Under the pieces are notes generated by a model. That model saw only the letters and a program-made list of their open reading frames with translations. It did not search any database and was not told where the DNA came from. The translations under genes were made by a program, and so were the position numbers. A stretch of 32,682 nt of DNA from an uncultured Ruminococcus sp. (GTDB lineage: Bacteria > Bacillota > Clostridia > Oscillospirales > Ruminococcaceae), in NCBI GenBank assembly GCA_902788785.1, contig CADALT010000027.1, positions 1-32,682 on the forward strand, given 5' to 3'. Shown here one piece after another: positions 18,555-19,456 of this stretch (position 1 is its first letter; each line of letters starts with the position of its first letter).

Positions 18555-18606
18555 ACCGTATCATTTGAATGTTGAGCGTATCAACATCATATGGTACGGT
18601 ATTTTT
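18555..18606 (+). terminator. Terminator after trmB
   Basis: Outer stem ACCGTA (18555-18560) with TACGGT (18595-18600), inner stem ATGTTGA with TCAACAT, followed by ATTTTT. Confidence 0.75.
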
Positions 18607-18692: not shown

Positions 18693-18721
18693 TTGACAAA
18701 CGGTTTTAAGTGTGCTATAAT
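18693..18721 (+). promoter_or_regulatory. Strong promoter of the structured leader and DUF2975 operon
   Basis: Perfect TTGACA (18693-18698) and TATAAT (18716-18721) with a 17-base spacer. Transcription should begin near 18728, about 250 bases before the first start codon, so the whole structured region is transcribed. The AT-rich DNA from 18607 to 18692 holds nothing else I recognise. Confidence 0.85.
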
Positions 18722-18749: not shown

Positions 18750-18761
18750 ATTACCGGTAAT
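18750..18761. promoter_or_regulatory. 12-bp perfect palindrome, possible operator
   Basis: ATTACCGGTAAT reads the same on both strands. It lies about 22 bases after the predicted transcript start and immediately before the structured RNA. A position just downstream of a promoter suits a repressor site; the HTH protein of the same operon is the obvious candidate ligand. This is inference. Confidence 0.4.
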
Positions 18762-18762
18762 T

Positions 18763-18958
18763 AAGGCAACACCGCACGACCATTGTGTGCCAGATACGCC
18801 AAACATCAGTGAAACTGATGTTTCAGATTTTTCGTCAGGTTTTCTAAATTTGACGCAGGGAGGCTGGCGCCTTTCAAGGAGAATTTAGGAAAGATGACGG
18901 AAAATATGCAAGTGGATGGTACACAAAGGCGTTAGCCGGTGGTCATGCGGTATTGCCT
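18763..18958 (+). ncRNA. Large multi-stem structured RNA leader of unknown class
   Basis: A nested fold can be drawn by hand. P1 pairs 18764-18782 with 18940-18958 (17 pairs, two symmetric C-A mismatches). P2 pairs 18783-18792 with 18917-18926 (10 pairs, one G-U). A small hairpin GGC-GTTA-GCC (18928-18937) makes a three-way junction. Inside P2 are a 10-bp hairpin (18801-18810 with 18814-18823, GAA loop) and a long arm (18824-18837 with 18895-18908, then 18840-18850 with 18882-18892) capped by 18858-18864 with 18869-18875. The gene's AGGAGG (18966-18971) starts 8 bases after P1. I know no class that fits; a palindromic mobile element is the main alternative. Confidence 0.65.
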
Positions 18959-18979
18959 GCGACTTAGGAGGACATGATC

Positions 18980-19456
18980 ATGATAAACGAGATAACGGGC
19001 TGGTCAGAGATGAAGTCCCTGAAGCTTTCAAGGCTTCTGGTATATCTGCTGATGGTGATGCTGATACTTTTGCTTTTCATAGCATACTTTGTTGCAGTTT
19101 GGTATGATGAGCTTTCAGACGGCACGGGCATTATAAAAAGCAGCGTGGTAGTTCCGGGGACTGTAATGATATACATATGCGATCTCTTTGGGCTTACAGC
19201 TGTTTTCTACCTTAACAGGCTGCTTGCAAACATAAGCAAGGACAAGGTATTTATTGAGCAGAACACAAAATGTCTGCGGATAATATCATGGTGCTGTGTT
19301 TTCGCAGGGATAGCGATGCTGGTGTTCAGTCTTTGGCGGTACTATTTCGGGATATGCGCATTCTTTGCGATGTTTATGGGACTTGTTATGAGGGTGCTAA
19401 AAAATGTTTTTGAGAAAGCGGTAGAACTGAAATCCGAAAGCGATTTCACCATATAG
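18980..19456 (+). CDS. DUF2975 family membrane protein
   Basis: A 158-residue membrane protein with four predicted helices (about residues 18-40, 60-80, 98-118 and 122-140), matching the DUF2975 family. Such genes are typically followed by a short YozG-like HTH gene, as here. Their function is unknown; the pairing suggests a membrane partner for the regulator. The start at 18980 is chosen because AGGAGG lies 8 bases before it; an ATG at 18974 would be too close. First gene after the structured leader. Confidence 0.8.
   Translation: MINEITGWSEMKSLKLSRLLVYLLMVMLILLLFIAYFVAVWYDELSDGTGIIKSSVVVPGTVMIYICDLFGLTAVFYLNRLLANISKDKVFIEQNTKCLRIISWCCVFAGIAMLVFSLWRYYFGICAFFAMFMGLVMRVLKNVFEKAVELKSESDFTI

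What the first reader, a model, noticed from the sequence alone, without database searches (positions are those of the whole stretch)
18763..18958. Large multi-stem RNA between a strong promoter and a membrane/HTH operon
Seen: a 196-nt segment folds by hand into a 17-pair closing helix with two symmetric C-A mismatches, a 10-pair second helix, a three-way junction, a 10-bp hairpin and a long branched arm. Almost every base is accounted for. It is preceded by a perfect promoter and followed 8 bases later by the AGGAGG of the DUF2975 gene. It lacks the conserved cores I know for TPP, lysine, cobalamin, glmS, T-box, SRP, RNase P, tmRNA or c-di-GMP RNAs. Inference: a new cis-regulatory or stand-alone RNA, or a palindromic non-autonomous mobile element whose transcript folds.
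Basis: partly seen in the sequence, partly recalled or inferred. Interest (0 to 1): 0.75.

Follow-up and report, generated by a model that had tools for sequence, protein, structure and literature searches.

The report
Jumping DNA repeat with kept RNA fold
The structured segment is one of many copies of a small mobile DNA repeat that landed between a promoter and a gene; unusually, its RNA fold has been kept by matched mutations on both sides of its stems, so the fold itself seems to matter, for a reason still unknown.

Summary
Window 18765-18957 folds far better than chance (z -11), but it is not a regulator of this operon. It is a copy of a short non-autonomous transposon (a MITE): inverted repeats at its ends, 13 complete copies found in this genome, 11 of them with identical 4-bp flanks, and no copy in any of 11 orthologous operons. 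A sister MITE in a genome of the same order has a matching IS5-family transposon; no partner was found in the window's own genome.

The unexpected part: although mobile, the fold is under selection. Over 22 elements of the genus, 27 of 58 pairs changed on both sides (covariation score 0.397; shuffled mean 0.193, 0 of 500 as high; slid partners at most 0.099). G-U pairs outnumber A-C mismatches 174 to 18, so one strand as a single-stranded molecule, most likely RNA, is what is kept. A core with an asymmetric internal loop recurs in elements with quite different ends; the core model matches 47 of 391 sampled genomes of the class. No Rfam family matches. What the RNA does is not shown: overall orientation to neighbouring genes is random and no internal promoter was seen.

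The parts
18765..18957 (+). 193-bp MITE copy (subfamily A), RNA-like strand = +
   Evidence: Own-genome copies; fold z -11 for 18763-18958; core model hit 99.2 bits
18765..18782 (+). left terminal inverted repeat GGCAACACCGCACGACCA
18940..18957 (-). right terminal inverted repeat (reads GGCAATACCGCATGACCA on the - strand)
18761..18764 (.). left 4-bp flank TTAA; the right flank 18958-18961 is TGCG, so this copy has no intact target duplication
18801..18823 (+). extra 10-pair hairpin present in subfamily A only (absent from the 171-172-nt elements)
18822..18909 (+). 88-nt RNA core shared with elements of other genera and families
   Evidence: model R1 hit, 99.2 bits, E 2.3e-24
18854..18858 (+). 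5' side of the asymmetric internal loop, CGCAG (loop GCA closed by C-G and G-C)
   Evidence: read; conservation
18875..18878 (+). 3' side of the internal loop, CAAG
   Evidence: read; conservation
18928..18937 (+). small side hairpin GGC-GUUA-GCC at the three-way junction; GGC/GCC is swapped to GCC/GGC in other members
   Evidence: helix 6
18693..18721 (+). consensus promoter of the host operon, shared with orthologous operons that lack the element
18966..18971 (+). AGGAGG ribosome-binding site of the DUF2975 gene, outside the element
18974..19456 (+). DUF2975 gene downstream of the insertion

Best explanation
Window 18765-18957 is one copy of a family of small non-autonomous transposons of the IS5-MITE kind. 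Shown: inverted repeats at both ends, dispersed intergenic copies, 4-bp target duplications (TTAA and variants), no coding content of note, and absence from the orthologous operons. Shown: one strand of the element folds into a three-way-junction RNA-like structure whose stems have kept pairing through many double changes, with a strong excess of G-U over A-C. Inferred from these: the fold is selected in single-stranded form, most likely as RNA. Inferred, less certain: the + strand RNA is made by read-through from neighbouring promoters, and works for the element and not for the flanking gene, probably by presenting the conserved C-GCA-G / C-RA-G internal loop and its apical hairpin to a protein. 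In this window the element landed in the 5' leader of a DUF2975-HTH operon, between the promoter and the ribosome-binding site, which lies outside the fold; any effect on the operon is a side effect.
For: Dispersed copies: 26 matching places in the own genome, 13 complete. Ends: 24 forward and 24 reverse end matches against 2 and 2 for the control pattern. Target duplication: 11 of 13 own copies; 41 of 52 in four genomes, and 15 of the 26 copies that are not TTAA on both sides (shuffled mean 3.1, largest of 2000 was 11). Empty site: 11 of 11 relatives with the gene have promoter, short leader and gene, with no element. Covariation: A2 27 of 58 pairs, score 0.397 against 0.193 shuffled; core A3 16 of 33 pairs, 0.405 against 0.173; family- to class-wide A6 21 of 33 pairs, 0.413 against 0.189; 0 of 500 shuffles as high in each, slid partners at most 0.132. 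Strand: G-U 174 against A-C 18; + strand folds better in 21 of 22 (A2) and 22 of 22 (A6). IS5 link: in G275 a 1216-bp element with an IS5 transposase (294 bits, NF033581) has ends that match the MITEs there at 14 of 18 (left) and 16-17 of 18 bases (right).
Against: No partner transposon with the GGCAACACC ends was found: 0 PF01609 hits in the own genome and in G044, no transposase-bearing end pair in the lists for four genomes. The window copy itself lacks the duplication. Transcription of any copy is not shown; no promoter-like site lies inside 22 of 22 elements scanned, which is awkward for an RNA with a function of its own. Folded as DNA, the + strand of L018 is also the better one (-44.0 against -37.3), so selection on single-stranded DNA is not excluded. 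Structures were drawn from these alignments or their folds, which favours them in the slid-partner control and in the G-U count. L050 does not fold better on the + strand. In G044 alone 14 of 17 copies point with the next gene.
Confidence: 0.8

Rival explanations
1. A cis-regulatory RNA (riboswitch-like leader) of the DUF2975-HTH operon.
For: Position between a consensus promoter and the ribosome-binding site, strong fold.
Against: Absent from 11 of 11 orthologous operons; copies stand beside many different genes in both orientations; no Rfam match.
Confidence: 0.03
2. The fold is selected as single-stranded DNA, for example a hairpin of one strand exposed during replication or transposition and bound by the transposase.
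For: The + strand folds strongly as DNA too (z -8.2); strand-biased single-stranded DNA would also favour G-T over A-C; no internal promoter.
Against: Terminal repeats and a 4-bp duplication point to a DDE transposon acting on double-stranded ends; the + over - advantage is much larger with RNA than with DNA parameters for L018 (-83.4 against -64.3 as RNA; -44.0 against -37.3 as DNA); the IS in G275 has no such core.
Confidence: 0.2
3. No selection: the palindrome is kept by template-switch repair between the arms (quasipalindrome correction), which copies one arm onto the other and mimics covariation.
For: Long imperfect palindromes are known to mutate this way (recalled, no call).
Against: Correction should make arms perfect and symmetric between strands, but G-U pairs are kept (174 against 18 A-C) and the asymmetric internal loop recurs across the class.
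Confidence: 0.1
4. A stand-alone small RNA gene that happens to be duplicated.
For: Discrete, conserved fold.
Against: Target duplications and inverted repeats, no internal promoter in 22 of 22, no consistent terminator tail (none in L018).
Confidence: 0.05

Closest known systems
bcr1-bcr3 repeats of the Bacillus cereus group
   Same: Small dispersed intergenic repeats, called structurally and functionally similar to MITEs, often part of UTRs; bcr10 and bcr18 of the same set have conserved secondary structures and were predicted to be RNA elements (passages of PMC3446304; passages of PMC6542083).
   Different: Other hosts; one passage ties BCR mobility to a TTTAT-associated, recombination-like mechanism, whereas here the ends and 4-bp duplication fit an IS5-type transposon. 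Sequence was not compared: no bcr sequence was at hand.
IS5 family insertion sequences and MITEs derived from them
   Same: 4-bp target duplication; in G275 the MITE ends match an element with an IS5-family transposase.
   Different: The IS carries no RNA core; a structured, covarying RNA inside an IS5-type MITE is not something I know of (recalled).
Self-standing transposon RNAs (IS200/IS605 guide RNAs, IS110 bridge RNAs)
   Same: Structured RNA carried by a mobile element.
   Different: No linked nuclease or recombinase gene seen, inverted repeats and duplication present, no Rfam match. Comparison recalled, not tested by a model of its own.

Membership tests
MITE (miniature inverted-repeat transposable element) | short element bounded by inverted repeats | tested here: met
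   160-193 bp in 13 complete own copies, 18-bp ends
MITE (miniature inverted-repeat transposable element) | target-site duplication | tested here: met
   11 of 13 own copies, 41 of 52 pooled with shuffle control; the window copy itself lacks it
MITE (miniature inverted-repeat transposable element) | dispersed multi-copy, mostly intergenic | tested here: met
   26 places in own genome; 5 of 93 copies inside a long ORF (crude ORF caller)
MITE (miniature inverted-repeat transposable element) | no transposase; an autonomous partner with like ends | tested here: inconclusive
   Partner found for a sister family in G275; none found for the GGCAACACC ends in the own genome, G044, G015, G136
IS5 family | IS5 transposase acting on these ends | tested here: inconclusive
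   Shown by sequence for G275 only; activity not testable here. YTAR-like targets as an IS5 trait are recalled
any Rfam 15 family | covariance-model score above gathering threshold | tested here: not met
   window 0 matches; 20 loci of relatives gave only a T-box and an L10 leader outside the elements
cis-regulatory leader (riboswitch class) | constant association with and orientation to a gene | tested here: not met
   0 of 11 orthologous operons; 48 same against 43 opposite
bcr1-like repeats | sequence homology to bcr1 | not tested
   no bcr sequence at hand

The most novel reading that the evidence does not exclude
A portable functional RNA core has spread with, and between, MITE lineages across the class Clostridia: the same core (AUUUUUCGUC..GRCGGAAAAU frame, C-GCA-G / C-RA-G loop, apical hairpin) sits inside elements with many different terminal repeats, so the RNA and not the transposon ends is the conserved unit, and it helps the elements persist or move by binding a host or transposon protein.
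Probability: 0.25. Interest if true: 0.8.

Novelty: new variant of a known kind. Interest (0 to 1): 0.5.

Why it matters
MITEs are usually seen as passive passengers of a transposase. Here a MITE superfamily of gut and rumen Clostridia keeps an RNA-like fold by compensatory change over genus, family and class, on one strand only. If an RNA role is confirmed, it would mean that some DNA transposons without genes still carry a working RNA, and it gives a ready set of natural variants (many genomes, many copies) with which to find the partner. It also warns that strong folds in leaders of such genomes can be insertions and not riboswitches.

Tried and rejected
A peptide reading: AAGGAG followed by ATGACG looks like a ribosome-binding site and start (a 13-codon frame in the window copy), but the letters are those of the pairing strands and the frame runs on in other members such as L017 and L032 (read by eye); not pursued.

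Cis-regulation: rejected on the empty orthologous sites and on orientation. The per-genome orientation counts are uneven: G044 14 same and 3 opposite, G003 7 and 13, G136 6 and 6, G275 4 and 3, own 8 and 8, other genomes 9 and 10. The ORF caller was crude (longest frames kept).

Autonomous partner: PF01609 was searched in 8 genomes and matched in 5. Only L196 had ends like a MITE. Its transposase matched no other of the 357 loci held at that time at E 1e-5. Two of the three G044 pairs were opened and hold no frame that I recognise as a transposase (by eye, no family search); the third starts with a complete MITE. A similar case in G003 was also opened, likewise.

Papers: ten searches in the held open-access library listed no paper that I recognised as describing this family; I saw listings only, apart from passages of PMC6542083 and PMC3446304. 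Subscription journals are mostly not held.

Phages and plasmids: 3 unannotated phage scaffolds matched, no plasmid, 5 viral contigs held the exact core pattern; not followed.

Rows dropped: A3 leaves out L025 and L033 of A2 (deletions in the core). A5 took 32 of the 45 matches plus L018 as reference, less L096, L041, L108 and reverse-strand or weak ones. A6 was picked by eye for elements with the full layout, so it leans towards it. Nine of 32 rows in A5 and 4 of 22 in A6 lack the loop pattern as I wrote it, among them clear members (L087, L017) and rows that may be other hairpins (L106, L110, L111, L115). So the class and order tallies at E 0.001 may include unrelated hairpins, and match counts per genome can count both strands of one place.

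Full report
What was checked. No Rfam family reaches threshold. The promoter, the DUF2975 gene and the HTH gene are as described.

What it is. The own genome (2.95 Mb, 67 contigs) holds 26 places that match the stretch; 13 are complete elements of 160-193 bp that begin GGCAACACCGCA and end TTGCC or a near variant. Three subfamilies occur: A, as in the window, with an extra hairpin; B (L017) and C (L018, L019) of 171-172 bp without it. Eleven of the 13 have identical 4-bp flanks: TTAA seven times, and TAAA, TTGA, TATA and TTTA once each. The two others are the window copy (TTAA and TGCG) and L019 (CTAA and TTAA). Pooled with copies from G003, G044 and G136, 41 of 52 have identical flanks; 10 further copies had an end that I could not place. 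Since TTAA is a palindrome, I looked apart at the 26 copies that are not TTAA on both sides: 15 have identical flanks, against a shuffled mean of 3.1 and a largest value of 11 in 2000 shuffles. These are target duplications of a transposon.

The insertion in this window. The gene 18974-19456 has relatives in 11 other genomes of the genus (of 29 searched, the own one included). In each of the stretches shown, a TTGACA..TATAAT-like promoter is followed by a short leader and the gene, with no element; the core model and an end scan find nothing in any of the 11 loci. So the element is a later arrival in the leader. Copies do not keep an orientation: over 93 copies in several genomes, the next gene downstream runs the same way in 48 and the other way in 43 (2 not scored; P 0.68), although G044 alone is skewed, 14 to 3; 5 of 93 lie inside a long frame.

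The fold is kept. The inner stems differ strongly between subfamilies, but in pairs. Over 22 elements of the genus (A2), RNAalifold finds 58 pairs, 27 with changes on both sides. Counted against controls, 96.6 per cent of cells pair, and the covariation score is 0.397 against a shuffled mean of 0.193 (0 of 500 as high) and at most 0.099 with slid partners. The core alone (A3, 20 rows) gives 16 of 33 pairs and 0.405 against 0.173. A sequence-only alignment of 22 cores from genus to class (A6, picked for the full layout) gives 21 of 33 pairs and 0.413 against 0.189. Related sequences can exceed such shuffles without structure, and the structures come from these alignments; the size of the gap, the number of pair types and the slid control make chance a poor explanation.

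One strand. In the pairs of A2, G-U occurs 174 times and A-C 18 times (86 and 14 in A3). The structure was derived on this strand, which favours G-U; but folded freely, the + strand is lower in 21 of 22 elements of A2 and in 22 of 22 cores of A6. L050, a degenerate copy, is the exception. For L018 the two strands differ by 19 kcal with RNA parameters and by 7 with DNA parameters. A cruciform of double-stranded DNA would not favour one strand. RNA is the likeliest form; single-stranded DNA is not excluded.

The core and its spread. Model R1 (88 positions) was built from A3. At E 0.001 it matches 15 of 29 genomes of the genus, 56 of 295 of the order in 36 of 149 genera, and 47 of 391 of the class in 30 of 223 genera. 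Weak matches may be other hairpins. An exact core pattern was found in at least 116 stretches of named genomes, where the scan stopped; the 80 listed are mainly Ruminococcus, Oscillospiraceae and Clostridia records, one is titled Bacteroides. Two kinds of relative stand out. In some the whole layout is kept, side hairpin included, while the ends drift, for example GGAGACACTGATTAAATC in G275 or AAGCACTGATTAAATATAG in L332. In others the core lies within a quite different closing helix without the side hairpin: L102, L104, L109, L112, L114, L092, L097, L346 and L354. L040 holds 31 letters identical to the core hairpin of L019 inside another closing helix. The recurrent feature is an asymmetric internal loop, C-GCA-G on one side and C-RA-G on the other; a loose pattern for it fits 23 of 32 rows of A5 and 18 of 22 of A6.

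The transposon behind it. In G275, which carries MITE copies with GGAGACACTGATTAAATC ends, locus L196 holds a 1216-bp element with a 341-aa transposase (NF033581 IS5 family, 294 bits; PF01609 and PF05598). Its ends match the MITE ends there at 14 of 18 bases on the left and 16 or 17 of 18 on the right, and one MITE copy has TTAG on both sides, the IS has TTAA and TTAG. The IS has no core. For the GGCAACACC ends no partner was found: PF01609 has no hit in the own genome or in G044, and end pairs at IS-like distances are absent from the lists of G015, G136 and the own genome; G044 has three, two of which were opened and show no transposase by eye. That the window's family is moved by an IS5-type enzyme is therefore inference from the like layout and the 4-bp duplication.

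How it may work. Shown: mobile, strand-specific, covarying fold, recurrent loop. Not shown: transcription. No promoter-like site lies inside 22 of 22 elements, so the RNA must come from outside promoters, as it would here. Orientation is random overall, so the flanking gene is not the client. I take it that the RNA serves the element, most likely by binding a protein at the loop and hairpin; this last step is a guess to be tested.

Known relatives. MITE-like bcr repeats of the Bacillus cereus group are transcribed in UTRs, and some have conserved secondary structures (passages of PMC3446304; PMC6542083). The present family differs in hosts and in the IS5-like ends. It is filed as a new variant of a known kind: a MITE, with an unusual, strongly covarying RNA fold across a whole class.

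Noticed in passing
window 18974-18980: The annotated-looking first ATG of the DUF2975 gene (18974) is probably not the start: relatives begin at the position of the second ATG (18980), 8 nt after AGGAGG.
   Followed up: partly
window 18577-18598: Terminator-like hairpin after the methyltransferase gene (PF02390) that precedes the operon.
   Followed up: no
L095, L107, L108, L186-L190: Two cores lie head to head, a few tens of bases apart, in several genomes of the order, without the usual terminal repeats.
   Followed up: no
L227 5540-5720 and L284 1990-2220: The core hairpin appears twice in tandem, separated by runs of N, inside a closing helix that reads ACTAATCC..GGATTAGT; possibly an assembly artefact.
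   Followed up: no
G015:C1:759090-759122, G015:C2:711644-711676, G044:C12:14634-14666: Minimal 33-bp palindromes made of the two terminal repeats with almost nothing between.
   Followed up: no
L040 1500-1532 against L019: A 31-letter core hairpin identical between two elements with unrelated ends; homology by transfer or recombination between MITEs is possible.
   Followed up: partly
L363 (MT835572.1 22964-27135): An unannotated phage scaffold from human faeces carries a full-length copy at 75 per cent identity.
   Followed up: no
L146 (G044:C14:19400-22500): Core with 94.5 bits but different ends (GGTCACCTCTGAAAACCA) in a genome whose other copies have GGCAACACC ends.
   Followed up: no
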